From: Siphonodentalium dalli
Taxonomy: Eukaryota > Mollusca > Scaphopoda > Gadilida > Siphonodentaliidae
DNA: 64,000 nt
Assembly (NCBI GenBank): GCA_032622095.1
Contig: CP136061.1
Location: 169,203,107 to 169,267,106 of the forward strand
Direction: 5' to 3'
The first letter of the stretch is position 1. Each line of letters starts with the position of its first letter. Shown one piece after another: positions 3,150 through 22,561 of this stretch. A program made the translations under genes and the position numbers. The notes under the pieces were generated by a model. That model was given only the letters and a program-made list of their open reading frames with translations, was not told the origin of the DNA and did no database searches.

Positions 3150-3381
3150 TGTAGCGGTTTTGGCCTCTTGTTCCACCGAGATCATCCGGAAACCCACGGA
3201 GATGTGTCTACACCACTCGGGACGACTCACGTGACCCGACTCTTCCCGAAGGTGACGTCATCCGGGAATTCCCTTCACTTCAACCACAGACTTCAAACCG
3301 ACAACTTCGCTCCGCGCTCAAGACTTCTATAATAGGTAATTTCATTAGATAACATCACTTATAAACCCTAATCATGTTATA
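3150..3381 (+). repeat. 5' LTR
   Basis: The 232 bp starting tgtagcgg and ending atgttata recur at 20504-20735 with a single difference (g at 3219, a at 20573). It begins with TG but ends in TA rather than the usual CA; the boundary is supported by the flanking gcac duplication and by the primer site starting two bases downstream. The 3' half holds a tataata stretch near 3328 that could serve as a TATA-like element. Confidence 0.95.
3228..3273 (+). promoter_or_regulatory. LTR cluster: E-box, CRE and kappa-B-like palindromes
   Basis: Within 46 bp the LTR has a CACGTG E-box (3228-3233), a perfect cAMP-response palindrome TGACGTCA (3253-3260) and a perfect palindrome GGGAATTCCC (3264-3273) that fits the NF-kappa-B consensus. 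The 3' LTR carries identical copies at 20582-20587, 20607-20614 and 20618-20627. Motif matching is seen in sequence; binding and transcriptional use are inferred. Confidence 0.55.
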
Positions 3382-3382
3382 T

Positions 3383-3393
3383 TGGCGACGAGG
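3383..3393 (+). other. Primer-binding site, tRNA-Ser(GCU)
   Basis: TGGCGACGAGG begins two bases after the 5' LTR. Its complement is CCTCGTCGCCA, the 3' end (acceptor strand, discriminator, CCA) of animal tRNA-Ser(GCU). Priming of minus-strand DNA from tRNA-Ser is known for Mag-type Ty3/gypsy elements. Complementarity beyond 11 nt is interrupted. Confidence 0.8.
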
Positions 3394-5426
3394 TGTTTCG
3401 AACTTAACGTGCGTGAAATAAAATGTAAATTAGAGTGTAATTAAATTATAAATGAATTTCTGATTTTTCTCTTGGAAAATTTTGGCGCGCCAAGCGCCGC
3501 CATCTTGCCTTCTTGCCCGAATTCTCGGCAATTTCCGGAAATGTTGGTAATTTTCCAAGAACACGCGTAAAGCAAAATAAACCATAAAGTAAACTAACAT
3601 TCTATTATTTATAAATCCTACATTTACAATAATGCACTTGGTAAACTCGTATTTAATGGACATTTTTTCTTTCAGATAGGCCCAATGCCGACGATTAATT
3701 CTACACTGTTTCCCTGAATTTGAGTCGTGCATATGAGCGCACAATTCATTGTTCAAATTCTTTCTGCAGTGTTTTGCCATGTTTCTATTTATTTCATCGA
3801 AATAGGCCAACTTTGGAACTTGCACAACACTGTTTAATTTTCTTGTCAATGTATTTCGTACTCTTATGATTCAATAAACGATTTGTTTTTTTATGTTATT
3901 CTCTCGGCAGAAACCGGAATAACATTAGCACCCACTAAATGATGTTTCGTTGGTTATCTCGAATATTCGCAACGTTGAACATAGCAAATTTGCTTGTAAT
4001 TTAAATGGTTATTACAAATTTTTGTAATAAAAGGTAAATTCTACGGGTGTCGCACTCTGGAGCCTTGCCGCTAAATCACATAAATTGCTGTTGGAAATGC
4101 TGAGTGACATGTTTTATGTCACCTAGGATACAGTGCGAATATTCGAAATACAGAAATACTCACAATAAAACTTATTTTTGAGAAAAGTACAACTTTTCAT
4201 TGCAATAGGTACGATAATTCATTGAGAGCTGTTTTTTTGCGTGGTGGAATAACTGTCCGAAAGCAGCTACTTGATGTAATAAATAAGTCTAAACAGTACT
4301 TTTATTTCCATGACATAATTAATTAACATAATATAAGGAGGATGCTATCTCTGTTGTGGCGATCGCGCTTCGCAGGAATAGAACTTCCAATAAACTTGTT
4401 AAATTTCATAGAAGAGATCAATTGGTAAATCAGACAGCGCGGAATAGGGATTTAAATTTTTGCAATAAACCTGGTATCCATTTTTTCGTCCATAAACTAG
4501 GTCATAATTAATTTGAATTCATAGACTTATCTGGCACATTTTGTATTCAGTGTTCATGGATGACATGACCACACGCGCGTAATCTGTGTTTTTTTTGTGC
4601 GCGATATAACTGTGCCAGTTAAATTAATAATTTTCAGCTGAATATTGTTGTTGTATGTAATGTATTACTAGTAGCTGTCCAGTTCACACAAATAGCTACT
4701 ATCAAATTGTTTGAACTTTTTGTGATTTACATTTCTTGAAATTATCTTGTGATAAATAATTTGGTTATTAATTTTGTGATTGTGATAAAGAATAATTGAT
4801 AATATAAAGCATTGTGAACTGAACAGATTGCAGCAACCTATATTTATATTGTAATACCCATTGAACCCTACTTGTGTTGATGTGCAACCACTGGCACATG
4901 TCAAAAAAGGTACCCACTTCTCGAATCATGCCGTTCTCTTCAATTCTTCTCAAGCAAGAGACGCGGGTCTTGAGGAATCTGATCTATTCCCTTTAGATTA
5001 ATGCAGATTAATTTAATACTTTTTTTCAATAACTCTGCTATTCAAATAAGTTACAGTTACTTAGGAAGCCGAGCATCATAAGTGTAACACACTTAAATCA
5101 GAATCAGTTAATCTGTTTCTAAACAGATTAATGTATATCACATAAATTTTGTATTGTAATTGTTGTGTGATATACATTCATAGATTAATTTGTTTTTGTG
5201 TAGTAAATTATTCAATTGTCTGAGTAAATGAGCAGCTTATAATTTATGTGTGATAATTGTTTTTGTAATAAGATATTTTTGTATTAATTTATTTTTGCTG
5301 CTCGTAGATTAATTTTTATAAGATAAGATTATTATGAGGAATGTATTAATTTAAAAGGGAATAGCATAACATCAGTATTCCAGTTAATGAAGTCTTCACA
5401 GGTGTTACTCACAGTCAATAATTAAA

Positions 5427-5580
5427 GCGGACGTTCCGTTTATTTTGCTAAAGTAATACCAGTGTGATTTAGTCTCGAACGTCAGATAAACGCGGACAAT
5501 CCGTTTGATAGGTTGAGAAAGGCTAATAAGACCAAAACTATCGAAGGCGAATATTAAAGGTAAGGCGGAAAATCCGTTTA
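5427..5580 (+). repeat. Three short palindromic repeats before ORF1
   Basis: Three copies of a palindromic core of the form gcgga..tccgttt occur at 5427-5442, 5492-5506 and 5565-5580, spaced 65 and 73 bp apart. Each core can fold as a small hairpin (cgga/tccg). The last copy ends 36 bases before the ORF1 ATG. They may be RNA packaging or regulatory hairpins; the function is inferred. Confidence 0.6.
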
Positions 5581-5602
5581 TTTTTACCAAAGCACAACAA
5601 AG

Positions 5603-5608
5603 GTGAGT
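5603..5608 (+). promoter_or_regulatory. Candidate splice donor before ORF1
   Basis: The sequence AAAG|GTGAGT matches the eukaryotic 5' splice-site consensus closely and sits 13 bases before the ORF1 ATG. With the pyrimidine-rich acceptor at 14757-14775 it would remove ORF1-gag-pol and place the third gene first on a subgenomic mRNA, as in env expression by retroviruses and errantiviruses. This is a consensus match only; no transcript evidence. Confidence 0.45.
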
Positions 5609-5615
5609 ATACATA

Positions 5616-6938
5616 ATGGCAACCAACGGAGTGGAAATAAATCTTTGCTCGCACGAGGAGTTGTGTAAAATAGTAGGCATTTCTGATGATTCAGCGGCAA
5701 AGATAGTAGTCCACAGGTCAAAGAAAGGTGATATCAAGAATAAGGAAGAATTGATAGAATTACTCACCCCCCACCTATGTGCCAGAATTAAAGGGCCAAT
5801 TGGCTATGCAACAAGCAAGGAACCACCAGAAACTCAGAAGGAGCAGAGCGCAAGCAGGGAGTACCAGGAGTACTCTCTTTCTGATGAGGACTTTCAGGAG
5901 CCCAAGTATTCCAGCTCTCCAATCACTACGAAAGGTAGACGAGAAAGAGAAAGGGAAGAACATGTGGCCTCTTACAAAAGAGAAACAGAACATATGGCCT
6001 CTTTAAAAAGAGAAGCACAGAGAGAGATGACGGAATATGAAAAGAGGCAACAAGAATGCGAAGAGTACAAAGATCCACGAAGGGAAGATCGAGAACAGGA
6101 AGAAAAAGACCTGCGACGTGGGACAATCAGCAAGGAGCAAGGAGATATCCAACCGAGGGACCAACAGGATAGTCGAGGAAATGAATTGTCGAGAGGGTGG
6201 AAATCGTATGAAGAACAGCAAGGGGACAGGTATGACCGCGTAGAAGAGGAAAGACACAAGTGGCAAGGGAAAATAGCCATTATGCAGAAAGAATTTGACA
6301 GAATGCAAAGGGATTTCGACCGAGAAATGTGCCAAAAAGAAAACCAACTTCAACAAGCTAACAGTGAGAATCTGCTGGTAAGAAGAAGTTTGGGGAATGT
6401 GGAAGAGGATCTTAAAGATCTTAAAAGGCAAAAAGAAAGAACCGGAAAAGGGTGGGAGGAAATGCACAGACAGTTGGACCAGGAGGAAAGAGAAAATGAA
6501 TTCCTGAAGAAAGAAAATGATTTCCTGAAGAAAGAAAATGAGTTCATGAAGAAAGCAATTAAGGAGAAAACACAAGAATGTGAGTCCCTGAAAGAAGAAG
6601 GAACTTGCTTGAAAAAAGAAAAGAGGGCACAGGCTCAAAGTTATGAAGACAAGTTGAGGGACGAGAGAGATGGGCGCCGGAAAGATAAACAAAGCTATGA
6701 ACAAGCTAGGGTGGTGCCCGAAGTACAAAGACACCCCACCCATTTTCCTCCACCAATCTGGCAACAACCACCATTCATGCATGGAGGCAATCAGCAGTAC
6801 ACATACCCGTCTAACCAGGTGGCGACCCCCAGCTATACAGATGCCACCAGCCACAATACCTCCAGTGACACCAGCGGTACAGGCAGTGGCCGATCTAGGG
6901 AGACGGGAGAGGGAGCCGGAACGAAACGACAGAAGTGA
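5616..6938 (+). CDS. Retrotransposon ORF1: HHH-like domain plus coiled coil (N-terminal Gag region)
   Basis: A 440-codon frame with a good start context (A at -3, G at +4). Residues 5-50 fit the ComEA-type helix-hairpin-helix pattern: an IN..(S)..EL start, a central GIS-type hairpin, A..I...R..KG and a final EL pair. Such domains bind DNA or RNA without sequence preference. Residues about 106-365 are extremely rich in Glu, Lys, Arg and Gln, with heptad-like FLKKEN repeats at 296-311, predicting a long coiled coil. The C-terminus (374-420) is Pro/Gln/Ser-rich. It ends inside the next frame (gag, +1 register), so it is either the front half of one Gag or a separate upstream protein. The role would be assembly or nucleic-acid binding in the particle (inference). 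Confidence 0.75.
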   Translation: MATNGVEINLCSHEELCKIVGISDDSAAKIVVHRSKKGDIKNKEELIELLTPHLCARIKGPIGYATSKEPPETQKEQSASREYQEYSLSDEDFQEPKYSSSPITTKGRREREREEHVASYKRETEHMASLKREAQREMTEYEKRQQECEEYKDPRREDREQEEKDLRRGTISKEQGDIQPRDQQDSRGNELSRGWKSYEEQQGDRYDRVEEERHKWQGKIAIMQKEFDRMQRDFDREMCQKENQLQQANSENLLVRRSLGNVEEDLKDLKRQKERTGKGWEEMHRQLDQEERENEFLKKENDFLKKENEFMKKAIKEKTQECESLKEEGTCLKKEKRAQAQSYEDKLRDERDGRRKDKQSYEQARVVPEVQRHPTHFPPPIWQQPPFMHGGNQQYTYPSNQVATPSYTDATSHNTSSDTSGTGSGRSRETGEGAGTKRQK

Positions 6939-8319
6939 GAACGAGGAACCAAGGAGATGGGGTGAGGACCGGGAGCATTATAGAGAGGAACGTAATGACC
7001 GGGGAAGATATGATAGAAGGGACAGGATAGGTGTTGAGAAAATACCATCTCGACTAAAGTTCGATGGAACCTCCATGTGGTTGGTGTTTGAGAAGAGATT
7101 CGTCCATTTCGCCCAGCGCCAGAACTGGGATGAGGAAGAAAAGAAAGAGAAACTGATCTGGTGTTTGGAGAAGAAGGCGGCCGAATTCTGCGCGATGGTC
7201 GACCGACAGGATGAAATGTCCTATCAACAACTTCTGAGGGAACTCCGAAGCAGATATGAGGAACATGATCGTCCTGAGAAGGCCCAGACGGATCTAGCAG
7301 TGGCCAAACAAAATACGGATGAACCTCTAGAGGACTGGGCAGACAGGGTCCAAAAACTGTCGATACAGGCCTTCAGTGACGCGCCGGGGGCAGTCCAGCA
7401 GAGACAGGCAGTACTAAAGTTCTGCCAAGGACTACTGGACAAGGAAACAGGGCAACATGTTGCCACTTCCGCCCAGCCAACCATTAAAATGGCAGTGGAA
7501 AAGGCGCAACTCTTCCAGCAGACCACGCAGGCGATATACGGGAAGAGACTGAAGAAAGAGGTAAAGGCCACATGGGTAGATTCGGATTCAGATTCGGATG
7601 GGGCCCAAATCAGCCAAGTGTATAGGGATCGGGACAATAGGGGACGAGGGGATGGAAGAAGGGCTCCCGACTTGGGGGATGGAAGAAGGAACAATTCCAG
7701 GTATGACCGGAATTGGAGGTCAGAGAGATCTGAGGGTCCCAACAATTCCAGGTATGACCGGAATTGGAGGTCAGAGAGTCCAAAGAACTCCGGGTATGAC
7801 CGGAATTGGAGATCGGAAAGTCCAAAGAACTCCGGCTATGACCGGAATTGGAGGTCGGAAAGTCCGAAGAACTCGGGGTATGACCAAAATTCCCGATATA
7901 ACCGGTCCCGAAAAACAGAAAATACGAAGCCGACAAATGATTCCACTCCATGGGGCAAGAGTGAAACTACAAGAGATGGAGACACTGCCAAAAACAGGAC
8001 GTCCGCAAACCAATCATCGGATGTCAACTTAAGGGTGAGCTCACTAGAGGGAGGAATGGGTGAGATGGCAGCAAACATTAAGAAGCTGATGGGCCTAGTA
8101 GAGGAGAAGTCAAGATACCGGAATTATTCCAACTATGGGGACAGATCGAGAAGCCCTTCACCTAGGCGAAATGCTGAAATGGTTTGCTTCAAATGTCAAA
8201 AACCAGGCCACTTTCGCGATAGCTGTCCCCAGAATCAACAACAGGACAGATTCTCTAAGAAAGTATCGTTCAATAAGAACGAGGAGTTAAACGAGAGCGG
8301 GTCGTCCATCGAGGCCTAG
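6670..8319 (+). CDS. Gag: capsid-like domain and CCHC zinc knuckle
   Basis: The frame is open for 549 codons, but the first ~70 residues look like a shadow of ORF1; genuine coding probably begins around 6870-6930, where the two frames overlap. Residues about 125-290 resemble the retrotransposon Gag capsid domain (FDG...W..F start, then helices with W.LE..A and L...Y). Residues 341-408 are a tandem repeat built on RYDRNWRSES. The nucleocapsid-type knuckle CX2CX4HX4C uses C506, C509, H514 and C519. An acidic DSDSDSD tract lies at 304-310. Gag would form the particle and bind genomic RNA. It ends just after a slippery site that leads into pol. Confidence 0.85.
   Translation: MGAGKINKAMNKLGWCPKYKDTPPIFLHQSGNNHHSCMEAISSTHTRLTRWRPPAIQMPPATIPPVTPAVQAVADLGRREREPERNDRSENEEPRRWGEDREHYREERNDRGRYDRRDRIGVEKIPSRLKFDGTSMWLVFEKRFVHFAQRQNWDEEEKKEKLIWCLEKKAAEFCAMVDRQDEMSYQQLLRELRSRYEEHDRPEKAQTDLAVAKQNTDEPLEDWADRVQKLSIQAFSDAPGAVQQRQAVLKFCQGLLDKETGQHVATSAQPTIKMAVEKAQLFQQTTQAIYGKRLKKEVKATWVDSDSDSDGAQISQVYRDRDNRGRGDGRRAPDLGDGRRNNSRYDRNWRSERSEGPNNSRYDRNWRSESPKNSGYDRNWRSESPKNSGYDRNWRSESPKNSGYDQNSRYNRSRKTENTKPTNDSTPWGKSETTRDGDTAKNRTSANQSSDVNLRVSSLEGGMGEMAANIKKLMGLVEEKSRYRNYSNYGDRSRSPSPRRNAEMVCFKCQKPGHFRDSCPQNQQQDRFSKKVSFNKNEELNESGSSIEA
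7690..7893 (+). repeat. In-frame tandem repeat in Gag (14-17 codons per unit)
   Basis: Four to five consecutive units encode variants of NSGYDRNWRSESPK. Unit lengths are 17, 15, 14 and 14 codons, all multiples of three, so the Gag frame is preserved. The Arg/Ser/Tyr composition suggests a flexible RNA-binding linker before the zinc knuckle. Confidence 0.85.
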
Positions 8320-8343
8320 AAACGACCCGAATCAAAGAAGGCC
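8286..8343 (+). promoter_or_regulatory. gag-pol -1 ribosomal frameshift signal
   Basis: The heptamer G TTA AAC (8286-8292) is in the Gag reading frame and fits a known class of -1 slippery sites. After a 5-nt spacer, cgggtcgt (8298-8305) is perfectly complementary to acgacccg (8322-8329), an 8-bp stem. Loop bases ggcct (8313-8317) can pair with aggcc (8339-8343), giving an H-type pseudoknot. The Gag stop codon (8317-8319) lies inside the loop. The pol frame is closed by a stop at 8274 and open from 8277, so a -1 slip at this heptamer enters pol cleanly. Slip efficiency is not known from sequence. Confidence 0.85.
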
Positions 8344-10235
8344 CAGGCAAAGAGAAAAAGCCTTCAGAACGTGGAAGCTCCATTATAAGTAGAGAGGGTA
8401 AGGCACAACCAAGTTGTAGAACTTATAGCCTGGAGGACGAAGAGTTCAATGCATCGATGTTCAATGTTGACTCTGACCAAACAGGTAGTGAGTTCAAAGA
8501 AGTTGTGAGCAAGCCCGGGAACGAGGTAGGTACATCAAAACGCCCTAGCCCAATGGTGAAGCTGGACGATGCATCGTTATCCGATGCTCAGCCGGCTTAC
8601 CAGGTGGATAGGGACATGAGTGGGCCTATCTTGATATCTGCCAACGAAAGAAATAAGTGGAGTAGACCAGAACCCAGGAAGGAACCGATAGGTGACGCGA
8701 GGGACGAAATACCCACGACTGGTAGGGAGGTAGAGCAAGTCGAAGAAAACTCGTGGAAGGGTGACGACGAAATCCTATCGGAAGAGAAATGCGAATGGAT
8801 CATGCCAGCGAACAGCATGAGTGAGCCCCCTAGTCAAAGAAAGGCTGAGATTGAAGAGATTGAGAACTCGGAGGATCACGATGAAACAGATCTAGTAGAT
8901 CCTCCGGATATGGGAATAGCTCAGCCTGGCGAACCATCTCCGGGTACGCTGAACAACGAAGAGGAAACCGTTGAAGTGACGATCCAACAAGTAAGGGGAA
9001 CCATGCTGTACATCCCAGTAGAGATCAATGGGAGCAGATTGAATGCCGTTGTTGATAGTGGTGCAGAAGTAACCATCGTATCGGATAAGGCTTTCAAGAG
9101 GCTGGAGAAACCACCTGACATCCAGAAAAAGGCGAAGATGCATACGGCAGGCAGGAATTTATGCATGAATGCGTGGATCACCCAGCCGACCAACTTGCTA
9201 TTAGGGGGAAAAACATACAGCCACCCCTTATATGTTGCTCCCGTGGGCGATGATATGCTGTTGGGGTTGGATTTCATGAAGAAACATTCTGCCCGTATAA
9301 ACCTAGACCGGGATATTATCGAATTGGGAGGAATCACTATCAAAATGGAACGCTTAGGGGATGCTGCCCATGATGGACAAATCCAAGTACGAGTTTCCAA
9401 GGCGACCGTGGTACCTCCAGGTCAGGTGTGCTTGTGCCAGGGTGTCATGGCCGAAAATCTCAAACCATACATCCTGGAAGGAACGGAGCATCCTAGTATC
9501 ATCATTCCGAGAACTGTTCACAGTGCCGGGAAAACCCCAGTGATCTGTCTCGTCAACACTTCAGAGAGATATATTAAATTCAAGCGAGGGCAAGTTATCA
9601 CCGCAGCATCTGAGGTGGAAGTATTGCGCTGTGACGGCGGCGCCAGTGTATCAGCAGTGCGAGTCGGAACAGAACCGTACAAAATCCCAGAACATCTGAT
9701 GGATTTATACAATCGTTCAGCGGAAAATTTAGAGGCAAGCCAGCAGGACGCTCTGGCTCAACTCATAAGTGAGTACGCTGATGTTTTCGCAATAGACGAA
9801 TATGATCTGGGGAACTTCACGGCAATGGAACACACTATTGATACCGGGGATGCTCGGCCCATTCAAATGAACCTCCGCCGAACACCCGTGGCTTTTGTCA
9901 ATGAAGAAAAACAGCTGTTGGACAAAATGCTGAGAGCCGGCGTGATTGAACCCAGCACTTCAGAATGGGCAGCTGCACCAGTACTGATCCGGAAACGGGA
10001 CGGCAGTATTCGCTGGTGCCTCGACTACCGCGGTCTGAACTCGGTGACTAAAAAAGATGTCTGGCCCATTCCCCTGTTCTCAGAATGTGTGGATTTGTTA
10101 AGCCAGAAACAGTATTTTAGCCATCTGGATGGAAATTCTGCGTATTCCCATTCGAGAAGAAGACCGCCACAAGACTGCTTTCCTAACAAAATACGGGACC
10201 TTCAATCACGTCCAACTCGCTTTCGGTCTTTGTAA
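8289..10235 (+). CDS. Pol segment 1: aspartic protease and N-terminal reverse transcriptase
   Basis: The frame is entered by the -1 shift at 8286-8292; its first internal ATG is at 8457. Counting from 8457, residues 1-180 are acidic and unstructured, the retropepsin active site is D200-S-G-A, and the second protease motif is MLLGLDF at about 267-273. Reverse transcriptase begins at about residue 480 with the conserved LD.M..AGVI.PS..EWA.P region and CLDYRGLN, reaching the first catalytic Asp in FSHLD (D558, codon 10128-10130). The frame then goes out of register at about 10144 and ends at 10235 in unrelated residues. The usual aromatic-Gln residues just after the catalytic motif are missing at the break. 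Confidence 0.85.
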   Translation, partial: KRERVVHRGLETTRIKEGPGKEKKPSERGSSIISREGKAQPSCRTYSLEDEEFNASMFNVDSDQTGSEFKEVVSKPGNEVGTSKRPSPMVKLDDASLSDAQPAYQVDRDMSGPILISANERNKWSRPEPRKEPIGDARDEIPTTGREVEQVEENSWKGDDEILSEEKCEWIMPANSMSEPPSQRKAEIEEIENSEDHDETDLVDPPDMGIAQPGEPSPGTLNNEEETVEVTIQQVRGTMLYIPVEINGSRLNAVVDSGAEVTIVSDKAFKRLEKPPDIQKKAKMHTAGRNLCMNAWITQPTNLLLGGKTYSHPLYVAPVGDDMLLGLDFMKKHSARINLDRDIIELGGITIKMERLGDAAHDGQIQVRVSKATVVPPGQVCLCQGVMAENLKPYILEGTEHPSIIIPRTVHSAGKTPVICLVNTSERYIKFKRGQVITAASEVEVLRCDGGASVSAVRVGTEPYKIPEHLMDLYNRSAENLEASQQDALAQLISEYADVFAIDEYDLGNFTAMEHTIDTGDARPIQMNLRRTPVAFVNEEKQLLDKMLRAGVIEPSTSEWAAAPVLIRKRDGSIRWCLDYRGLNSVTKKDVWPIPLFSECVDLLSQKQYFSHLDGNSAYSHSRRRPPQDCFPNKIRDLQSRPTRFRSL

Positions 10236-10683
10236 CGCGCCAAGTTGCTATTCCAGGGCCATGAGCCTTGTGCTCCAGGGGTTAAACTGGAATATAGCAT
10301 TGGCATTCTTAGACGACGTTCTGGTGATGGCGTCGGATTTTTCTAGCCACGTCGTCAACCTTAAGAGGGTCCTGGAAAGATTCCGGAAATACCAACTCCG
10401 CCTAAAACCCAAAAAGTGTGGCTTGTTTCAAAGAAAAACAGAATTCTTGGGGCGAACGATAGACGGCCAGGGCATGACGATGACAGATGCCTCCTGCAAG
10501 GTCATCGAGGAGTGGCCGACCCCTCGAAATAGCAAGGACGTAGAAAGATTTTTGGGATTGGCAGGATACCACAGAATGTTCGTAAAGAACTTCTCGAAGC
10601 TCGCCGCCCCCTACACCAGCTCACAGGGAAGAATCCAAAATTTGAATGGGGTTACGAGCAAGAAGAGGCTTTCCTTGCCTTAA
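10129..10683 (+). CDS. Pol segment 2: C-terminal reverse transcriptase (palm and thumb)
   Basis: Genuine coding resumes at about 10144 in this frame. Conserved blocks are KTAF.T..G.F...Q..FGL.NAP, the catalytic FLDD pair (codons 10312-10317), GL.L...KC.F....EFLG, and the connection-type F.GLAGY.R.F. The polymerase core is thus readable apart from the break in motif A. Sequence becomes non-homologous after the C run at 10607-10611; the last ~25 residues are out of frame. Confidence 0.85.
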   Translation: MEILRIPIREEDRHKTAFLTKYGTFNHVQLAFGLCNAPSCYSRAMSLVLQGLNWNIALAFLDDVLVMASDFSSHVVNLKRVLERFRKYQLRLKPKKCGLFQRKTEFLGRTIDGQGMTMTDASCKVIEEWPTPRNSKDVERFLGLAGYHRMFVKNFSKLAAPYTSSQGRIQNLNGVTSKKRLSLP

Positions 10684-10694
10684 GAGAAGCCCTT

Positions 10695-11024
10695 ATGACA
10701 CCCCCGGTTCTTGCTCTACCGACAATAGAGGACCCATTCATACTGGATACGGATGCCTCGGACGGGGCGATAGGCGCAGAGCTAATCCAAGTCCAGGAAG
10801 GGGTGGAGAAAGTCATTGCGTATGGAAGCATATCTTTGAGTCGTGAGCAAAAGAACTATTGCACGACTCGTAAAGAATTACTGGCCGTGGTATTTTTCGC
10901 CAGGACGTTCCGGCACTATTTGCTGGGGCGACCTTTTGTGGTGCGAACTGACCACGCCAGCCTGACATGGCTCCTACGCTTCAAGCACCCCAAGGCCAGA
11001 TTGCACGATGGCTGGAAGAACTGA
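10695..11024 (+). CDS. Pol segment 3: RNase H (N-terminal part)
   Basis: This frame carries the Ty3/gypsy RNase H hallmarks: LDTDASDGAIGA (first Asp), SR.Q.NY.TTRKELLAVV (catalytic Glu), and RTDHASLTWL (next Asp). The frame continues upstream without an ATG to the break at 10607-10611. It goes out of register at the C run 10988-10991, and the last ~12 residues are spurious. RNase H removes genomic RNA from the RNA:DNA hybrid during reverse transcription. Confidence 0.85.
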   Translation: MTPPVLALPTIEDPFILDTDASDGAIGAELIQVQEGVEKVIAYGSISLSREQKNYCTTRKELLAVVFFARTFRHYLLGRPFVVRTDHASLTWLLRFKHPKARLHDGWKN

Positions 11025-11530: not shown

Positions 11531-13094
11531 CATACCCCATATGGAAATTAATACGGTGAGTCAGGTCGTGGCAGACGCATGCCCTCTTCAACTGTATATG
11601 GCTGACGACCTGAAAGAAGCACAAGGCGAGGACGTGGATTTACACAAGATGAGAGAGGGAGTACTCTGGATGATAAACAGACAAGAGCAGACAGTCAGAG
11701 TTCTTCCTTGGAATTTGCAAGGTGAAGCGATAAGAGTGTGCCACGATTTACCAGCATCAGGGCACCAAGGGATGGAAAGAACGTTGGAAAGAGCTAAACA
11801 GAATTTCACGTGGTACCACATGTCAGAAAGCGTCCGCCAATATGTTTCGGGGTGTCAACAGTGCAATGCAAGTAAGAAGTTGAACCGAAAAGCAAAGAAC
11901 CCCATGATTATGTTTCATTCAGGTTACCCCATGGAGAGAGTTCATCTAGACTTTCTGGGACCGCTCCCAGCCACGGATCGTGGCAATGAGCATATCCTGG
12001 TGATGGTCGATCAATTCACTAAATGGGTGGAATGCGTACCGTTACCTAACCAGACTGCGGAAACGACTGCCCAGGCAGCCGTGAACGAGTTTTTTACTAG
12101 GTTCGGGTACCCGTTCCAAATATTTACTGACCAGGGTGCCAATTTCCAAAGTAAATTGTTTACGGCACTATGTGACCTGATGAAGATACATAAGACCAAA
12201 ACTACAGCCTATAGACCATCGGCGAATGGGCAATGTGAGAATCACAACAAGACCTTGATGGCAGCTGTTAGATGCTTTGTGGAGAAATGCCCAAATCAAT
12301 GGGACAAGTACGTTTCTCAGATAGCTGGGGCACTACGGTCATCTGTGAATCGATCCACAGGATTCACGCCGAACAAATTAATGTTGGGGAGGGAAGTGAA
12401 CCATCCAGCTGCATTGATGTTCGGAGATCCCAGCCCGGGAGAAGAAGAAGTCCACGAGTATCTGAAGGTCTTGAGTACGAATATCCGTGAGGCTCACGAT
12501 ATAGCAAGAAAAACTCTGGTAACCACGCAGAAGAAAATGAAGCGAGATTATGACACCAAAATATTACAGAAGGTATACCATCCTGGGGAATTAGTGTATA
12601 TTTTGGACACAGCCGTCATAAAGGGAAAACCCAAGAAGCTTCAGCCGGTACGGAAAGGTCCGGGAATTGTGGTTGACCAGATAACACCCTTCTTGTATAA
12701 AGTGAAGTTGCAAAAGGCCCAATTCGTCACTAATCACGACAAGATGAAGCTATGCCGGAACCGGGAAATCCCACCTTGGCTGAAGACCTTTGTGGATAAT
12801 GGGTTCAGCTTGGGGGAGGTTGTGGATAGTTATTCATCAGTCCTAAAGGGTAAAGGGAAAAAGGTGAGTCCGGACTGGCAGGGGCCGAAGATTATCACTC
12901 AGAAATTATCACCTTTTCTGTACGAGGCAAAAGACCAAACCATCGTTAGTCGTCTTCTGCCTGACCGACTAAGAAAACACAAAGGTAAGATGCCGACATG
13001 GATAAAAGCCATCCGCAAGGAACTACCCATTTTGGGAACCAAGACGCGCTCCGAATATTGTTTCTGTAGAAATCGGACAAAGGAACATTTATGA
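11304..13094 (+). CDS. Pol segment 5: integrase with two GPY/F-like modules
   Basis: 596 codons. The N-terminal zinc-binding HHCC uses H147, H154, C184 and C187. The catalytic core is D216, D276 and E312, with exactly 35 residues between the last two, the canonical DD35E. After the core, residues about 441-492 form a GPY/F-like module (KGPGIVVDQITPFLYKVK) and 515-568 form a second, diverged copy (QGPKIITQKLSPFLYEAK); both end in a P.W(L/I)K motif. The frame then enters a PHD finger (YCFC at 585-588) that is cut by a frame break at 13088-13090. Integrase inserts the cDNA into host chromatin, and its C-terminus often selects the target. Confidence 0.9.
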   Translation: MEIRELTLIPDWGSELGSHPTVTCVAKVTNGEEISHQVGVGVARATIGEVQGNPESGLIKVSATDLGKVHFIGSIDIPHMEINTVSQVVADACPLQLYMADDLKEAQGEDVDLHKMREGVLWMINRQEQTVRVLPWNLQGEAIRVCHDLPASGHQGMERTLERAKQNFTWYHMSESVRQYVSGCQQCNASKKLNRKAKNPMIMFHSGYPMERVHLDFLGPLPATDRGNEHILVMVDQFTKWVECVPLPNQTAETTAQAAVNEFFTRFGYPFQIFTDQGANFQSKLFTALCDLMKIHKTKTTAYRPSANGQCENHNKTLMAAVRCFVEKCPNQWDKYVSQIAGALRSSVNRSTGFTPNKLMLGREVNHPAALMFGDPSPGEEEVHEYLKVLSTNIREAHDIARKTLVTTQKKMKRDYDTKILQKVYHPGELVYILDTAVIKGKPKKLQPVRKGPGIVVDQITPFLYKVKLQKAQFVTNHDKMKLCRNREIPPWLKTFVDNGFSLGEVVDSYSSVLKGKGKKVSPDWQGPKIITQKLSPFLYEAKDQTIVSRLLPDRLRKHKGKMPTWIKAIRKELPILGTKTRSEYCFCRNRTKEHL

Positions 13095-13216
13095 TTCAGT
13101 GTAACACCTGCGAAGAATGGTTTCATGGGCCTTGCGTGCGTATCTCCGAAGAAGACGCGAGACATCTGGATATTTACAGTTGTCGGAACTGCCTAAATCA
13201 AAGCGGAAAAACGTAG
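13056..13216 (+). CDS. PHD finger at the C-terminus of Pol (split by a frameshift)
   Basis: Reading YCFC in the integrase frame and MIQCNTCEEWFHGPC...CRNC in the next frame (ATG 13091 to TAG 13214-13216) gives a complete Cys4-His-Cys3 PHD pattern. Spacing and aromatic residues (Tyr before the first Cys, Met before the third Cys pair, Trp before the His) match PHD fingers of the CFP1/KDM7 type, which read H3K4me3. The two halves are separated by an apparent one-base loss in a T run (13088-13090). A reader domain here would parallel the chromodomain of chromovirus integrases. Confidence 0.8.
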
Positions 13217-14756: not shown

Positions 14757-14775
14757 TTGATCTCCATCTCCCTAG
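14757..14775 (+). promoter_or_regulatory. Candidate splice acceptor before the third gene
   Basis: A pyrimidine-rich stretch ends in ccctag at 14775, 30 bases before the ATG at 14805, and fits a 3' splice site. Together with the donor at 5603 it could make a spliced mRNA for the TatD gene. A tataaaat stretch at 14798-14805 overlaps the ATG and is too close to act as a TATA box for it. Confidence 0.4.
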
Positions 14776-14804
14776 TTCTTTGTAAAGGGTTTCCTCTATA
14801 AAAT

Positions 14805-16115
14805 ATGGACGTGGATAAGGAAAATATCAGCCCTAGGAGGGATTGGCGCCCAAAATTGTCTATCACGGAGAGGGTCCAGAAGGCATGTCGCAACCACTCG
14901 TTGATGGATGTCACCACCTTGTTCAATGAGATTGGGTTTGATGATAACCTGCACGCCCCTCAGATTGAGGATCTGACCCTGATGCAATATCGGCTCGCGG
15001 TGTACCAGAAAAACGCTCGATGGATCACGCGATGCAGACAAGATGCTAGACTATTTTTGGATGATACCTGGATAGATAACAAGCTTCCAAGTCTCGACGG
15101 AAAACAGAAAATTTCTCGCCAGCGCCCGGCTACAAGACGCCCTACTGAAACAGAAACCATAGATACGAGAGATCACACCACCGTCCTTTATGAACTCTCT
15201 TCCTCTCGAAGAAATGACACCGAGGTGAGAAATCCTTCATATTCTTCCCCGTCTTCCTCAGTAAAGCCACCGCCTTCCGCAGCATCATCTTCACAGTCAT
15301 CCGTACTGCTTAACCAGGAGCAGCCTCCTTCTTCCAGACCTTCCGGGCAGAGACCTGCCATTCCTTCTGCGTCGATGTCTTCTTCCTCGTTAGATCAACC
15401 GCTGCGACCACACTCCGAAGCCGAAAGGAACCGGTCTCGCTCACATCAAAGACAAAGTCATTCCTCTCATAGAGAATCTCGACAATCGCAGGGTGCATCT
15501 CGTGTAGATAGACGCCATTCACCACGCATTTCCAGAGACCATGGACGGCGGGACTCTAGGGCAACCATTCCCTATCGCCATTCTCCATTAAGGAAATATT
15601 CAATGCGCCACTCACCATATCCGAGATCTCAGGGGTCAGGGATGGCACAGCCTTATGAACAGCCCCTTCGAGAACGTCAATGTTCGGTCGCACCCTTTCG
15701 ATCACATCAGGGTAACATGTCATTGCAGAGATCAACGTCTTCTCCTTCTCGTAGGAATCCATCCAGTCTCGACTCGCGAGATATTGGGATTCCTTCAGCT
15801 CAGTCTTCTCGTAGGAATACGGCCAGTCTCGACTCCCGAGATATTGGGATTCCTTCGTCTCAGTCTTCTTCCCAGAAGAATCAGTCTCGTCTCGACTCCC
15901 GAGACATTGGGATTCCTTCATCTCAGTCTTCTTCCCAGAAGAATCAGTCTCGTCTCGACTCCCGAGACATTGGGATTCCTCCGTTTCAGTCTTCCCGGAT
16001 AGACTCGTCCCGTCTTGACTCCCAGGATAGTGGGGTCCATCCATCACCTTTCATCTTGCCGAATCCTCCCCGTCTCGAGGCTCTGAGGCTTCACCATTAT
16101 ATTCTTCTATTCTGA
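14805..16115 (+). CDS. Third gene, part a: Ser/Arg/Gln-rich N-terminal region
   Basis: 436 codons starting with MDVDKENISP, with A at -3 and G at +4. Residues 1-95 look folded: a short helical block with FNEIGFDDN, Q..DLTLMQYRLAVYQKNARW and RCRQDARLFLDD. Residues 110-300 are disordered, rich in Ser, Arg, Gln, Pro and RS/SR pairs. From residue about 320 there are tandem repeats built on LDSRDIGIPSSQSS. The last ~12 residues are out of frame, because the repeat loses 7 nt near 16074-16079, at a short direct repeat (ctcga); the proper frame continues in part b. No family name is recognised. It is probably the regulatory N-terminus of the TatD protein. Confidence 0.7.
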   Translation: MDVDKENISPRRDWRPKLSITERVQKACRNHSLMDVTTLFNEIGFDDNLHAPQIEDLTLMQYRLAVYQKNARWITRCRQDARLFLDDTWIDNKLPSLDGKQKISRQRPATRRPTETETIDTRDHTTVLYELSSSRRNDTEVRNPSYSSPSSSVKPPPSAASSSQSSVLLNQEQPPSSRPSGQRPAIPSASMSSSSLDQPLRPHSEAERNRSRSHQRQSHSSHRESRQSQGASRVDRRHSPRISRDHGRRDSRATIPYRHSPLRKYSMRHSPYPRSQGSGMAQPYEQPLRERQCSVAPFRSHQGNMSLQRSTSSPSRRNPSSLDSRDIGIPSAQSSRRNTASLDSRDIGIPSSQSSSQKNQSRLDSRDIGIPSSQSSSQKNQSRLDSRDIGIPPFQSSRIDSSRLDSQDSGVHPSPFILPNPPRLEALRLHHYILLF

Positions 16116-16280
16116 AGAATCCTCCTCGTCTCGAATCTCGAGGCTCTGAGGTTGCACCATTAAATAATTCTATTCTGAGGAATTCGCCCAATCTCGATTC
16201 TCGAGATTCTGAGGGCCCATCATCATATTCTTCTGTTCTGGGGAACCTACCCCGTCTCGAATCCCGAGATTCTGAGGTTT
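15765..16280 (+). repeat. Coding tandem repeat of about 60-66 bp in the third gene
   Basis: Units contain tctcgactc(c/g)cgaga followed by ttgggattcc or ttctgagg and a run of tcttct. They encode LDSRDIGIPSSQSS-type and later LESRDSEV-type peptides. They run across the frame break at about 16076, supporting the view that parts a and b were one gene. Confidence 0.8.
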
Positions 16281-16906
16281 CCAGTTTTAACGTCATGCCA
16301 TTAACTGGGGGAGCTACGACAGAGATCAATACCTCTGTTAATTCTACAGATTCTCGGGTAATTCTTCCCATGGAGTTACTGACTGAGGAAGTCAATTCTC
16401 TTCCTCCTTTGGTGACCTCTCTTGTTGAGCCAGGAGAGAAGCCGGTTAGCAAGAAAGTTCCACCTCGTAACGACACCAAGTGTCCTCTGTGCGGTCAACC
16501 GCCTAAGAAGATGAAACGGCATTGCATGGTCCATCATCTCCCTCAAACAGTCTGGGAATTTAGGACAGCAGATCAACCCCAACCGGAAGATTGGGAATTT
16601 CTTTTGCTCTTCCTTGCTAAACGTCTTAACTGTAGTCTCGCGGAGTTGATTGGAAAGTGTAATAACAGCTCCGTAAGGATGCCGTCTTCGAGCATCACAC
16701 CCGATTGCTTGACCATGATGGCAGAATTTCAGTCTTTTCTTCACACACAGTATGATTGGCCAGTGGTGGACAAGTTTTCTCTCCATCCCATTAACTCTGT
16801 GGCCGTGCTTCTGCACTGGAGACCTCTGCAATTTGCTACTCCAAATTCCCCTGGAGGGACAAGAGTTTTCGTAATCTTTGCCCAGGTCGCCTTTGCAATT
16901 TTGTAA
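16079..16906 (+). CDS. Third gene, part b: zinc-finger region
   Basis: This frame continues the repeat of part a; its first ATG is at 16295. Counting from that ATG, residues 61-83 hold a C2H2-type finger, CPLCGQPPKKMKRHCMVHH (C63, C66, H76, H80 or H81), followed by LP. About 100 residues of helical character follow (FLLLFLAKRLNCSLAELIG, LTMMAEFQSFLH, VAVLLHWRPLQF). A similar finger-plus-helical layout upstream of TatD occurs, to my recollection, in invertebrate TATDN2-like proteins. The frame loses coding character near 16843-16880, with one or more small indels, and part c continues the gene. Confidence 0.7.
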   Translation, partial: GSEASPLYSSILKNPPRLESRGSEVAPLNNSILRNSPNLDSRDSEGPSSYSSVLGNLPRLESRDSEVSSFNVMPLTGGATTEINTSVNSTDSRVILPMELLTEEVNSLPPLVTSLVEPGEKPVSKKVPPRNDTKCPLCGQPPKKMKRHCMVHHLPQTVWEFRTADQPQPEDWEFLLLFLAKRLNCSLAELIGKCNNSSVRMPSSSITPDCLTMMAEFQSFLHTQYDWPVVDKFSLHPINSVAVLLHWRPLQFATPNSPGGTRVFVIFAQVAFAIL

Positions 16907-16953
16907 CCAGATCTGGGAAAGCTCGACTGAACCAGCAGCATCTGACCGCTGAA

Positions 16954-18339
16954 TTGAACCTGACTAATGTAAAGAAGTCCGATGGAGTACCCATATCCAC
17001 GAAGAAGAAACCGGTTTATCCGAATCTCCACATCCAGATATCAGGCGAGTCTTTTCCACCACCCCATAAACTCCAGATAAGATGCGGACCTCCCCGAACT
17101 GTCAGCTGTTCCCCTCCAACTGCAGATCCTGCGATTTCAACGCTCCCCCCACCTTCCGAGGTTAAGATCAGCCACTCAACAGGTTCTGACAATACTGTTC
17201 CACCGGTCCCGCAACCACCAATCTACACTCCAGATGCTGTTTCTACAGTTCTGGATCCAGGTGTACTTACTGTGGATGCTGTACTTACAGTTCCGATTCT
17301 TTCGGAATCTCCCACTGGGTCAATGGACACGACCCTGGTTCTGGGAAGTGACCCTCCCCTTACACCGGAGGTCAGCAACTCTGCCAACGCGGATAGTATT
17401 CTTGGGAGCTCATCAGGCCAGTGGCCTCCCCTCAGTGTTCCGCAGAATAGGATCAGCCGAATCACTCTTCCTATTCTTCCCCCACCTCGGGATTTTGGGC
17501 TAGCTAGAATGGCTGTAGATTCACACTTCCATTTAGATCGCTTGCATGATTGTCTTAGAGGCTATCCGAAATTTGACATAGAGGACATGCTCCAATATCG
17601 ACCTTCGCCATTCCCGACGACTCCAATCAACCTTATAGGTGGAGTGATGATCTTCTGTGATCCCTCCACTTACCCGGTTGACATCCGTGTTGATACCCCG
17701 TTTAAGACGGCCGTTGGTCTCCATCCAAAGGAAGCCGGTCTTTATTCATCTTACCATAAACGTCTCGATGAATTGTTTGCACATCCCGGTACGGTCGCAA
17801 TTGGCGAAATTGGACTGGACCGGACTATGGCACCTAGCTACTGGGAGCAACAAGATTCTGTCTTTAGGGATATCGTCAAGTCTGCAGTACTATATCAGAA
17901 GCCCATAGTTCTTCATTTACGAGGTCTTGCGAATTTCCCTGCTGATGTCTATGCCCGAGGACACAAGATTGTCTCCGACGTCTGTCCTCCTAACCAACTA
18001 ATTCATCTTCACTGCTTCAATGCTGGCGTGGAGGAGTTCCAACAGTGGAGCAACTCCTTTCCCCATTGCTACTTTGGTTTTACGGCTGCTGTGACATTCT
18101 TCAACGTATCTCAGAAAAGGGCGTTGCAAGCCATACCTTCTTCCCGTCTTTTGTTGGAAACAGACTCTCCCTACTTTGGTCAACCTTGGGGAGCCGAAAT
18201 CAGTAGCCCCGCCTATATTGGAAATGTTGCGCGAGTCGTATCCGACATCCGGAACGAAAGTCTTCAGGACATCTTACAAGCAACGATTCTGAATACTAGC
18301 CGGTTTTACGGAACACCTGTTCCGGGGAACTTCCTTTAA
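16954..18339 (+). CDS. Third gene, part c: TatD-family metal-dependent nuclease
   Basis: 461 codons from this ATG; the frame is open upstream from at least 16801, so the ATG is not necessarily the true start. Residues 1-185 are a Pro/Ser/Thr-rich linker. Residues 186-461 (276 aa, normal TatD size) form the TIM-barrel nuclease. Metal-site motifs are all present: DSHFHLD (H191, H193), GLHPKE, AIGEIGLDR (E285), VLHLRG (H321), HLHCFNAG (H353) and LLETDSPYF (D404). TatD enzymes are Mg/Zn-dependent 3'-5' exonucleases or endonucleases; human TATDN2 has been linked to R-loop RNA, which would suit a retroelement. The domain is intact, unlike the broken upstream parts. I infer that it is a gene captured by the retroelement. 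Confidence 0.9.
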   Translation: MNLTNVKKSDGVPISTKKKPVYPNLHIQISGESFPPPHKLQIRCGPPRTVSCSPPTADPAISTLPPPSEVKISHSTGSDNTVPPVPQPPIYTPDAVSTVLDPGVLTVDAVLTVPILSESPTGSMDTTLVLGSDPPLTPEVSNSANADSILGSSSGQWPPLSVPQNRISRITLPILPPPRDFGLARMAVDSHFHLDRLHDCLRGYPKFDIEDMLQYRPSPFPTTPINLIGGVMIFCDPSTYPVDIRVDTPFKTAVGLHPKEAGLYSSYHKRLDELFAHPGTVAIGEIGLDRTMAPSYWEQQDSVFRDIVKSAVLYQKPIVLHLRGLANFPADVYARGHKIVSDVCPPNQLIHLHCFNAGVEEFQQWSNSFPHCYFGFTAAVTFFNVSQKRALQAIPSSRLLLETDSPYFGQPWGAEISSPAYIGNVARVVSDIRNESLQDILQATILNTSRFYGTPVPGNFL

Positions 18340-19798
18340 TATTCTCTCCCTCAGTCGGGACCAACCGCCACATAGGCGTTTCTTTGTGTATTATATTGTA
18401 ATGTTTCAACTAGCCGGACCGATGAAGTAATCATCATTCCTATTTTTATGGTAGAATTATCATCTTCCCCTTTAGTAGAATTCCTGTATATATTCTGGAA
18501 CTTCTCTTGGACTAGACGGACCCATCATGATTCCTGTTTTCGAGAACGTTGGAAACCAATTAATTTGTCAAATGTTTGAGTATTCTTCCATGTATTTCCC
18601 CGTAGGTTCACTAAACAAGTCTGAGGTGACTGAATCAAATTGGATAGTATTGTTGGGATTCTATATTCATAAGTTAACATGGTTTATTATAAAGTATTAG
18701 ATATCACAGTAGGTTTGTCAAGTTGAAACTAAACAGAGCCCCTATTCTATTTAACACAGAGGTTATTAATCACATTAATTCATAAGTAAGCATAATAAAT
18801 GGTAATTTCCACCTGTCAGCCATGGTGTCAGAAAGAGTGCGTCTTCCTTGTTCAGTGTCCAGTTCTGTTTCCTCTGTCTTTGGAGATACAGGGAGTCCTT
18901 TCTACATCCATATTTCGGCCAAGCCCACTGGACATCTTTCTTCACCACACCGCTGTCTTTGTGCTCCATCATGCGGTTGATTGTAATCACCAGGGACCGT
19001 TGAATTGATGTCCGGAAACTGTATTTTACGTGTGGTTGATTTTGAATGTCGAATTTAGACATTTCAACATGTTGTCAGCAATGTAAAGCAATCATAACAT
19101 GAAATATATGTTTTAAACTGTGTAATCATGATTTAAACACTGTTGATCGTCGAAGGTATAATTATCGGCAAGTCATTTTGACGAAAGTTTCATCAACAAA
19201 ACACACATTTCCGTCTCTACACTACAACGTCGCCAATGAAACCACAACAGGACATTGTATTCTATTTAACAACATGGTTTATTCTATATAATGGTCACAA
19301 AAGGTAGTAATGCAAGATGTCAGCTAAATAGGTCTTGTTCGGTCGGGATTCAGTTCTGTTCTAAGGTAATAAAAGGAATCTACGCTCTGTATATAATATG
19401 GTCAATAAAGTAATAGGACATTGAATTCTCTATTTAACCTAGTTCGTTATAATAGCAAGAATGGGTCTTGCTCGGTCAGCGATCAGTTATGTTTTGTCAT
19501 ACTGGGTCGCTAAGATTTTGTAAATATGTTATGAGTTTGTCTGATCCGGCCCGAGGAACTATTGTAGATGCGAGTTTCTCGTTCTGCTGGTCCTCCGTGG
19601 TATTGAGCTTGTCCTTTTCGCTGAGAAGAAGTCTTCATTCTCCTTGTCGGACAGCCTTGCCCAACCAGATGCCGGCCTGGAAGCGAGCACATCGTTCCAT
19701 ATATTCTTTGTTTAATGCACTCGAGAGAGGAAACCGCTCCACAGCGATCTTGGGTAACGAGGTCACCCGACCCAGGCTGACATGAGAAAGGAACCCCC

Positions 19799-20060
19799 AT
19801 GAAGACTCCCTAGTCTGATGTACTGGTTCCAGATATCATCTTTGTCACCATAATCCGTCCGAACCAAGAGCGATACGAGAAAAGAACCACAAATGAAGAC
19901 TTCCTAGTCTGATGTAGTGGTTCTCTATATCGTCTTTGCCGCCTCAATCCGTCCGAACCATGACTAACACAGGAAAGGAATCCTGATGAAGACTCTTGGG
20001 TCTGATGTATGGATTCCCTGTATCGTCTATGCCACCGTAATTCGCAAATCACAACGAATA
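19799..20060 (+). repeat. 93-94-bp degenerate tandem repeat, three units
   Basis: Units start at 19799, 19893 and 19986 with atgaagact, followed by tctgatgta, a atatc/gtc core and accgtaat/tcaatccgtccgaacc. Several indels and substitutions separate the copies. Confidence 0.8.
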
Positions 20061-20200
20061 GCAAAGGCACTAGTCTAGTTGGAAGGATCAAGGCCCTGAT
20101 GACGACGGTCGGCGTTTACCCGAAGATTTAAGCTGAGTAGAACCTTCAAGGGAGCATCATGTTGTACATCTGTATATATATTCCGCATTATTTCCTGTTC

Positions 20201-20480
20201 CACGGAGCATCCGAATAAACCCATTTCGTCCACGAAGCGTTCCGAGGAATCCAATTCTTCTACAGAGCATCTGAATCGACTCATTCCTCCATGGAGCCTC
20301 CAAATAAACTCATTTCTTCCGCTGAGCGTTCCAGGAAATTCAACCCTTCTACGGAGCATCCGGAGGGACTCATTTCTTCTATGGAGCATCCGGGGTCTTT
20401 CATTTCTTCAACGGAGCCTCCCGATAAACTCACGTCTCCTACTAAATGTCTGGGTTATCTCATTCCACCGGATATGGAGC
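20201..20480 (+). repeat. 30-bp tandem repeat, nine units, next to the polypurine tract
   Basis: Units begin at 20201, 20231, 20261, then 20291, 20321, 20351, 20381, 20411 and 20441 with a (c/t)ggagc(a/c)tcc core followed by catttcttc. The period is 30 bp, with a one-base slip between units 3 and 4. In the main frame each unit encodes a 10-residue peptide like STEHPEGLIS. It could be the remains of a coding repeat or a 3'-untranslated minisatellite. Confidence 0.85.
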
Positions 20481-20494
20481 CAATTCTTCAAAGT

Positions 20495-20503
20495 GAGGGG
20501 GAA
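20495..20503 (+). other. Polypurine tract
   Basis: The run gagggggaa lies directly against the 3' LTR, extended leftward by aaagt. It is the expected plus-strand primer for reverse transcription and confirms the + orientation of the element. Confidence 0.9.
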
Positions 20504-20735
20504 TGTAGCGGTTTTGGCCTCTTGTTCCACCGAGATCATCCGGAAACCCACGGAGATGTGTCTACACCACTCAGGACGACTCACGTGACCCGACTCTTCC
20601 CGAAGGTGACGTCATCCGGGAATTCCCTTCACTTCAACCACAGACTTCAAACCGACAACTTCGCTCCGCGCTCAAGACTTCTATAATAGGTAATTTCATT
20701 AGATAACATCACTTATAAACCCTAATCATGTTATA
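20504..20735 (+). repeat. 3' LTR
   Basis: 232 bp identical to 3150-3381 except a at 20573 (g in the 5' copy). No AATAAA is visible in the LTR, so the poly(A) signal is not obvious. The flanking gcac duplication follows. Confidence 0.95.
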
Positions 20736-22554: not shown

Positions 22555-22561
22555 ATTATTT

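What the first reader, a model, noticed from the sequence alone, without database searches (positions are those of the whole stretch)
3150..20735. A 17.6-kb Ty3/gypsy retrotransposon that has acquired a TatD nuclease gene
The LTR pair, target duplication, primer site and polypurine tract enclose a full gag-pol plus a third gene ending in a TatD-family nuclease. Known Ty3/gypsy extra genes are usually env-like. A nuclease with a full metal site in the env position is, to my knowledge, not a standard part of these elements. TatD proteins act on DNA or RNA ends, and TATDN2 is reported to act on R-loops, so it could process reverse-transcription intermediates or counter host defence. This role is inference.
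Basis: partly seen in the sequence, partly recalled or inferred. Interest (0 to 1): 0.88.

Follow-up and report, generated by a model that had tools for sequence, protein, structure and literature searches.

The report
LTR retrotransposon carrying a TatD nuclease
A jumping element of the Ty3/gypsy retrotransposon kind carries, in the place where such elements may have an envelope gene, a gene for a TatD-type nuclease with its active site intact; whether other copies carry it too could not be tested here.

Summary
A 17,586-bp LTR element spans 3150-20735: 232-bp LTRs, 231/232 identical; target duplication GCAC, primer site and polypurine tract. It encodes a CCHC gag, protease, RT, RNase H, a DD35E integrase, and a third coding region ending in a TatD nuclease domain (Pfam 2.4e-39). 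All metal ligands are kept and the domain is unbroken. The AlphaFold model matches solved TatD nucleases. No sign of a nested insertion was found, so TatD most likely moved with the element. "Full gag-pol" is too strong: pol and ORF3 have frame breaks. The decisive test, other copies in the host genome, could not be run: the genome search failed 14 of 14 times and the protein database was off. Closest precedent: rotifer LTR elements whose ORF3 is a DEDDy exonuclease (PMC5408684). Ten searches of an open-licence library showed me no paper on TatD in an LTR element. New variant of a known kind.

The parts
3146..3149 (.). target-site duplication, left copy (GCAC)
3150..3381 (+). 5' LTR, 232 bp, TGTAGC...GTTATA
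   Evidence: 231/232 identical to the 3' LTR
3383..3393 (+). primer-binding site TGGCGACGAGG; fits the 3' end of a serine tRNA (GCT) as recalled, tRNA not checked by a call
   Evidence: tRNA identity recalled
5616..6938 (+). first ORF, 440 aa: N-terminal helix-hairpin-helix (HHH_3) then coiled-coil-like stretch
   Evidence: Pfam PF12836 5.7e-9, above cut-off; FPP coiled-coil model 9.6e-8, below cut-off
6670..8319 (+). gag ORF, other frame: sub-threshold PNMA and Retrotrans_gag matches, zinc knuckle CCHC near 8185, in-frame 42-bp repeats with pN/pS about 0.11
8277..10235 (+). pol frame: aspartic protease and start of reverse transcriptase
   Evidence: PF13975 3.4e-12; RT start by eye
10102..10683 (+). 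pol frame: reverse transcriptase (FLDD motif), broken out of the frame before it
   Evidence: PF00078 1.3e-15; Ty3 Gag-Pol 7q5b 1.4e-30 in PDB
10533..11024 (+). pol frame: RNase H
   Evidence: PF17919 3.4e-30
11286..13094 (+). pol frame: integrase with HHCC, D-D-35-E, and two GPY/F-like modules (12657-12698, 12882-12923)
   Evidence: PF17921 2.6e-16, PF00665 7.5e-13; motifs; PFV and Ty3 integrase in PDB
13056..13213 (+). PHD finger directly after integrase; its first Cys pair lies in the integrase frame, the rest in another frame
   Evidence: PF00628 1.4e-9 for 13076-13213
14802..16115 (+). ORF3 first frame: ATG at 14805, Ser/Pro/Arg-rich, 63-bp in-frame repeats
16031..16906 (+). ORF3 second frame: Cys/His zinc-finger-like motif CPLC...H....H at 16481-16537 (by eye, no Pfam match to a zinc finger)
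16795..18339 (+). ORF3 third frame, ends in the TatD nuclease domain (about 17509-18320, unbroken)
   Evidence: PF01026 2.4e-39; motifs HFH 17524, GEIGLD 17803, LHLR 17911, HLHCF 18004, ETDSPY 18157
18340..20503 (+). 3' untranslated region with 94-bp and about 30/89-bp tandem repeats, ending in the polypurine tract 20490-20503
20504..20735 (+). 3' LTR, 232 bp
20736..20739 (.). target-site duplication, right copy (GCAC)

Best explanation
This is a probably young but now broken copy of a large Ty3/gypsy (Metaviridae) LTR retrotransposon whose third coding region encodes a non-envelope accessory protein ending in a TATDN2-like, metal-dependent TatD nuclease. SHOWN here: the LTR frame, gene order, the complete metal site, the TatD fold by prediction, and the lack of any nested-insertion mark that I looked for. 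INFERRED: the nuclease travels with the element as a family trait. INFERRED: the element makes it as ORF3, and it works on the element's own nucleic acid (RNA in RNA:DNA hybrids, 3' ends, or abasic sites in new cDNA), because human TATDN2 is reported to degrade R-loop RNA and TATDN1/TATDN3 to cut abasic sites.
For: LTRs 231/232 identical with a 4-bp target duplication around the whole. Pfam domains in order on one strand. TatD domain 2.4e-39 with the metal-site residues invariant in an alignment with 25 prokaryotic TatD proteins chosen by hand from 59 usable ones. Model pLDDT 79.6, pTM 0.83; best solved match YcfH, TM 0.75 and 0.80 by query and target length, E 1.9e-15. No internal LTR pair, no A run of 7 or more in 13095-14801 or 18340-20503, and no 12-mer shared by the two sides of ORF3. 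GC of three ORF3 pieces 0.47-0.50, like gag-pol at 0.46-0.50. No window at the membrane threshold in ORF3. Activities of relatives: PMC10707325 and PMC12709183, passages.
Against: Only this copy was seen; family status is untested. ORF3 itself has two frame breaks in this copy. GC is weak evidence: the element's own non-coding parts are at 0.33-0.42, so the match of ORF3 and gag-pol may only mean that both are coding. Codon usage gives only weak frame-specific support: the TatD segment scores -0.05 against -0.19 and -0.35 in its other frames, with non-coding windows at mean -0.35 and best -0.17; synonymous choice gives no support; in the Ser-rich part and at the TatD end the best frame wavers. 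Substitutions between the ORF3 tandem repeats give little sign of selection: pN/pS 0.59 in the first array (lowest of the three frames), but in the second array pN exceeds pS (0.246 against 0.217), the worst of the three frames. The recalled TATDN2 scores hardly better than the best bacterial protein (91.2 against 89.0 bits). The 95% range of LTR divergence, 0.01-2.4%, is wide, so the age is loose.
Confidence: 0.65

Rival explanations
1. One-off capture: the element's RNA once picked up a host TATDN2-like transcript; the TatD gene is a passenger in this copy or a few sisters and does nothing for the element.
For: Only one copy seen; ORF3 is broken by frame shifts; codon and repeat tests for constraint are weak or against it.
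Against: About 3.5 kb of ORF3 with an unknown Ser-rich N-terminal part, a Cys/His motif and a TatD domain only 33.7% like the recalled human TATDN2 is not what I would expect of a fresh copy of a conserved host gene (no invertebrate TATDN2 was at hand to check); all ligands kept.
Confidence: 0.23
2. Nested insertion or chimera: TatD belongs to a second mobile element, a processed gene copy, or a misassembly inside the LTR element.
For: A 1.6-kb stretch with tandem repeats and no coding signal separates pol from ORF3, so a junction could hide there.
Against: No inner repeat pair beyond two chance-level 15-16-mers, no A run, no shared 12-mer on the two sides; same strand.
Confidence: 0.07
3. The third gene is an ordinary envelope gene misread as a nuclease.
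For: It sits in the env position; one window of the third frame reaches hydropathy 1.57, just under the 1.6 threshold.
Against: TatD match 2.4e-39 with metal site and fold; 0 windows at or above the threshold in 3 of 3 ORF3 pieces. Cleavage and glycosylation signals were not tested.
Confidence: 0.01

Closest known systems
Bdelloid rotifer LTR retrotransposons Juno and Vesta with ORF3 DEDDy exonuclease or GDSL esterase (PMC5408684; passages and section 3.3 seen)
   Same: LTR element with a non-envelope enzyme, in some a nuclease, encoded as ORF3, catalytic residues intact, no membrane segments
   Different: DEDDy (DnaQ-like) exonuclease is an unrelated fold (recalled); there several families show it as a trait, here one copy is known
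Ty3/gypsy (Metaviridae) elements
   Same: PR-RT-RNaseH-IN order, RT nearest Ty3 among solved structures, DD35E, GPY/F-like module, 4-bp duplication
   Different: 17.6 kb, HHH domain in the first ORF, duplicated GPY/F-like module followed by a PHD finger, TatD in the env position, LTR ends in TA
Human TATDN2 and the TatD nuclease family
   Same: TatD barrel with all ligands; FCDPxT and GFTAxxT as in the recalled TATDN2, absent from 59 of 59 prokaryotic TatDs compared
   Different: Encoded by an LTR element, next to a different N-terminal region; only 33.7% identical to the recalled sequence
Chromoviruses (Ty3/gypsy with an integrase chromodomain; abstract of PMC3605345 in the listing)
   Same: a chromatin-reader-type domain at the end of integrase
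   Different: PHD finger instead of chromodomain

Membership tests
Ty3/gypsy (Metaviridae) LTR retrotransposon | two near-identical LTRs with target duplication of 4-6 bp, primer site and polypurine tract | tested here: met
Ty3/gypsy (Metaviridae) LTR retrotransposon | protease-RT-RNase H-integrase order (integrase last) | tested here: met
Ty3/gypsy (Metaviridae) LTR retrotransposon | RT nearest Ty3 | tested here: met
   among solved structures only: 4ol8 (4e-31, Ty3 RT by recall) and Ty3 Gag-Pol 7q5b (1.4e-30), next row 8r0s 1.2e-13; no clade tree was possible
Ty3/gypsy (Metaviridae) LTR retrotransposon | DD35E integrase with GPY/F-like module | tested here: met
   (pattern search; spacing counted from its positions)
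Ty3/gypsy (Metaviridae) LTR retrotransposon | usual TG...CA LTR ends | tested here: not met
   TG...TA in both LTRs; PMC12440569 says most, not all, LTR elements end in TG...CA, so I take it as common rather than defining and keep membership on the other rows
TatD nuclease family | TatD domain, metal ligands, barrel fold | tested here: met
   NCBIfam TIGR00010 matches at 1.2e-33 but below its curated cut-off (116.6 against 206 bits)
TatD nuclease family | nuclease activity | not testable with these tools
   none
TATDN2 subfamily | closer to TATDN2 than to other TatD groups | tested here: inconclusive
Element family with TatD as standard ORF3 | several copies with LTR, pol and TatD in the same order | not testable with these tools
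Envelope-bearing errantivirus or retrovirus | envelope ORF with membrane segment after pol | tested here: not met
   (hydropathy only; best window 1.57 against 1.6)
DEDDy-ORF3 elements | DnaQ-like exonuclease in ORF3 | tested here: not met
   only TatD_DNase found in the ORF3 pieces

The most novel reading that the evidence does not exclude
A lineage of very large Ty3/gypsy elements combines an HHH domain upstream of gag, a PHD-finger integrase and a TATDN2-like nuclease ORF3 kept by selection to process reverse-transcription or integration intermediates. Some of the 'TATDN2' genes annotated in invertebrate genomes, such as the one shown among transposon-like genes in the giant-squid Hox cluster, would then be pieces of such elements.
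Probability: 0.35. Interest if true: 0.75.

Novelty: new variant of a known kind. Interest (0 to 1): 0.56.

Why it matters
If other copies carry it, an LTR retrotransposon lineage has recruited a cellular RNA/DNA nuclease in place of an envelope. That gives a defined enzyme with which to ask what limits reverse transcription or integration, and it would warn that some invertebrate 'TATDN2' annotations may be transposon genes. A PHD finger after integrase would also be a possible histone-reading tether in the place where chromoviruses have a chromodomain.

Tried and rejected
Relatives: IMG/VR scans with the TatD ORF, an RT piece and an integrase piece gave no relative; an RNase H DNA pattern gave 1 contig with no real pol match; an alignment scan gave 1 distant TatD, 25% identical; a TATDN2-type DNA pattern gave 10 contigs, none a relative. 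These scans need short exact matches and may leave out records near the window, so distant relatives could be missed. Plasmids: 80 records, 5 listed. Phages: 25 records, under 31% identity in the 10 listed. Rfam and ARAGORN found nothing in the window. PHROGs found nothing for 4 of 4 proteins.

Rows dropped: of the 85 loci held, 59 gave a usable TatD frame (open, 230 residues or more, phmmer 1e-5, HxH near the start, at most 330 residues; 3 of the 59 are plasmid loci); the motif census and the tree use these 59. The structure alignment uses 25 of them, chosen by hand.

Constraint tests: codon usage and pN/pS between tandem repeats did not decide for ORF3; only the gag repeats show clear constraint. 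One search compared the LTRs two bases out of register; the identity comes. One search used one stretch in a wrong frame, corrected. The Cys/His region of ORF3 (16388-16789) folded badly (pLDDT 48) and has only one Pfam match, far below its cut-off, so no function is claimed. Viral fold library: a Yasminevirus protein matches TatD well (E 2.5e-13), a Pandoravirus one weakly (1.3e-4); among the 50 rows listed of 551 I see no reverse-transcribing virus or LTR element by name, but some rows carry no name.

Literature: ten searches in open-licence PMC papers. Five required TatD or TATDN2 in every hit and listed all hits (4, 8, 1, 6 and 4 papers, some the same); of these papers I read passages of four (PMC5408686, PMC6962438, PMC10707325, PMC12709183), the rest I saw as listings only. 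The other five did not require TatD and their lists, but, are capped. None of what I saw reports TatD in an LTR element. Of PMC5408684, PMC6338049, PMC6431247 and PMC12440569 I saw passages, of the first also section 3.3. Subscription papers and Repbase entries are outside that library.
Full report
Structure of the element. Two 232-bp direct repeats, 3150-3381 and 20504-20735, are 99.57% identical, which is 1 difference in 232 bases. Both read TGTAGC...GTTATA, and GCAC stands on each outer side. TGGCGACGAGG follows the left LTR after one base, and AAAGTGAGGGGGAA stands directly before the right one. From memory the primer site fits tRNA-Ser(GCT); no call tested that. The 95% range of LTR divergence is 0.01-2.4%, so the insertion looks young but its age is loose. 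No other copy of the element pieces tested occurs in the window.

Gene content. Pfam, + strand in order: HHH_3 (5.7e-9) followed by a coiled-coil-like stretch in the ORF 5616-6938; zf-CCHC (9e-5) with sub-threshold PNMA and Retrotrans_gag matches in 6670-8319; aspartic protease (3.4e-12) from 8277; RVT_1 (1.3e-15); RNase H (3.4e-30); Integrase_H2C2 and rve (2.6e-16, 7.5e-13). The RT piece matches Ty3 best among solved structures (7q5b, Ty3 Gag-Pol, 1.4e-30; 4ol8, 4e-31, is Ty3 RT by recall; the next row is 1.2e-13). The integrase piece matches foamy virus and Ty3 integrase. It keeps HHCC and D-D-35-E and has two GPY/F-like modules. Right behind it lies a PHD finger (1.4e-9), split from the integrase frame by a frame change.

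Broken frames. Pol changes frame near 10.15, 10.6, 11.0 and 11.3 kb and again between integrase and PHD finger; ORF3 changes near 16.07 and 16.85 kb; the HHH ORF and the gag ORF are in different frames (places judged by eye). Programmed shifting, decay and assembly error were not separated.

The TatD gene. The last 276 codons of ORF3 (from the ATG at 17509) hold an unbroken TatD domain (PF01026 2.4e-39). In an alignment with 25 prokaryotic TatD proteins HxH, E, H, H and D are invariant. The AlphaFold2 model (26-row alignment) has pLDDT 79.6 and pTM 0.83, lowest in parts of the first 51 residues. Its best solved matches are E. coli YcfH (E 1.9e-15), S. aureus TatD and human TATDN1. NCBIfam's TatD model TIGR00010 matches at 1.2e-33 but below its curated cut-off. 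The rest of ORF3 is Ser/Pro/Arg-rich with 63-bp in-frame repeats and a Cys/His motif at 16481-16537; Pfam finds nothing convincing there and the model of that region is poor. No ORF3 piece has a window at the membrane threshold, though one reaches 1.57 against 1.6; with the TatD match this argues against an envelope.

Which TatD. In a 61-row maximum-likelihood tree the two group with 95/97 support, but both branches are about 6 changes per column and the program warns that long branches meet there. The recalled TATDN2 is the top match by only a little (91.2 against 89.0 bits), and identity to it is 33.7% over 252 residues, no higher than to the best bacterial proteins (33-36%). I read this as TATDN2-like with a long separate history; it is not proof, and no invertebrate TATDN was available.

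Is TatD part of the element? For: same strand, inside the LTR and duplication frame; no internal repeat pair except two chance-level 15-16-base matches; no run of 7 A in the stretches before and after ORF3; no 12-mer shared between the two sides of ORF3. GC of three ORF3 pieces is 0.47-0.50, like gag and pol (0.46-0.50), against 0.33 in the leader, 0.41 in the spacer, 0.42 in the 3' untranslated region and 0.35-0.37 in the flanks; since the element's own non-coding parts are low too, this may only say that ORF3 is coding. Against, or not helpful: codon scores give only weak frame-specific support and synonymous choice none. The ORF3 repeats show pN/pS 0.59 in the first array and pN above pS in the second, where the coding frame is the worst of three, while the gag repeats show about 0.11. 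One copy cannot show a family.

IMG/VR scans gave no relative element.

Function. [quoted passage not shown] TATDN1 and TATDN3 have abasic-site endonuclease activity (PMC12709183, passages). An accessory nuclease that trims RNA from RNA:DNA hybrids or repairs cDNA is the reading I find most likely; all of this is inference from relatives. Precedent: rotifer Juno and Vesta elements carry DEDDy exonuclease or GDSL esterase as ORF3, acquired independently at least twice for DEDDy (PMC5408684, section 3.3 read). Its main text has no mention of TatD; nor do those of PMC6338049 and PMC6431247 on accessory domains and giant transposons. The giant-squid genome paper lists an annotated TATDN2 in the Hox cluster beside transposon-like genes (PMC6962438, passages); whether that is an element gene is a guess.

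Verdict. It is a new variant of a known kind (LTR retrotransposon with an acquired non-envelope ORF3), unusual in the enzyme and in the PHD and HHH domains, with its family status open. On rechecking, the GC argument proved weaker than I first held it, and I moved 0.01 from the best explanation to one-off capture.

Noticed in passing
13056-13213: PHD finger (PF00628, 1.4e-9) directly behind integrase, after two GPY/F-like modules; a possible histone-reading tether in the place of a chromodomain.
   Followed up: partly
5616-5760: Helix-hairpin-helix domain (HHH_3, 5.7e-9; weak ComEA matches) at the start of the first ORF, followed by a coiled-coil-like stretch, upstream of the CCHC gag in another frame.
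   Followed up: partly
28700-64000: Large satellite array of about 190-, 196- and 225-bp units arranged in a higher-order repeat of about 2.8-2.9 kb; 1-kb blocks up to 99.7% alike.
   Followed up: no
20896-24007: Short dispersed direct and inverted repeats (65-89% alike) that look like small inverted-repeat elements beside the LTR element.
   Followed up: no
13786-14163 and 19785-20421, against 5957-6555, 7725-7885 and 15755-16279: Tandem repeats inside the element: in coding parts the main periods are 21, 30, 42 and 63 bp, multiples of three; in non-coding parts 44, 54, 94 and about 30/89 bp, of which 54 and 30 are also multiples of three.
   Followed up: partly
PMC6962438, giant squid: An annotated TATDN2 gene listed beside transposon-like genes in the squid Hox cluster; could be an element gene.
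   Followed up: no
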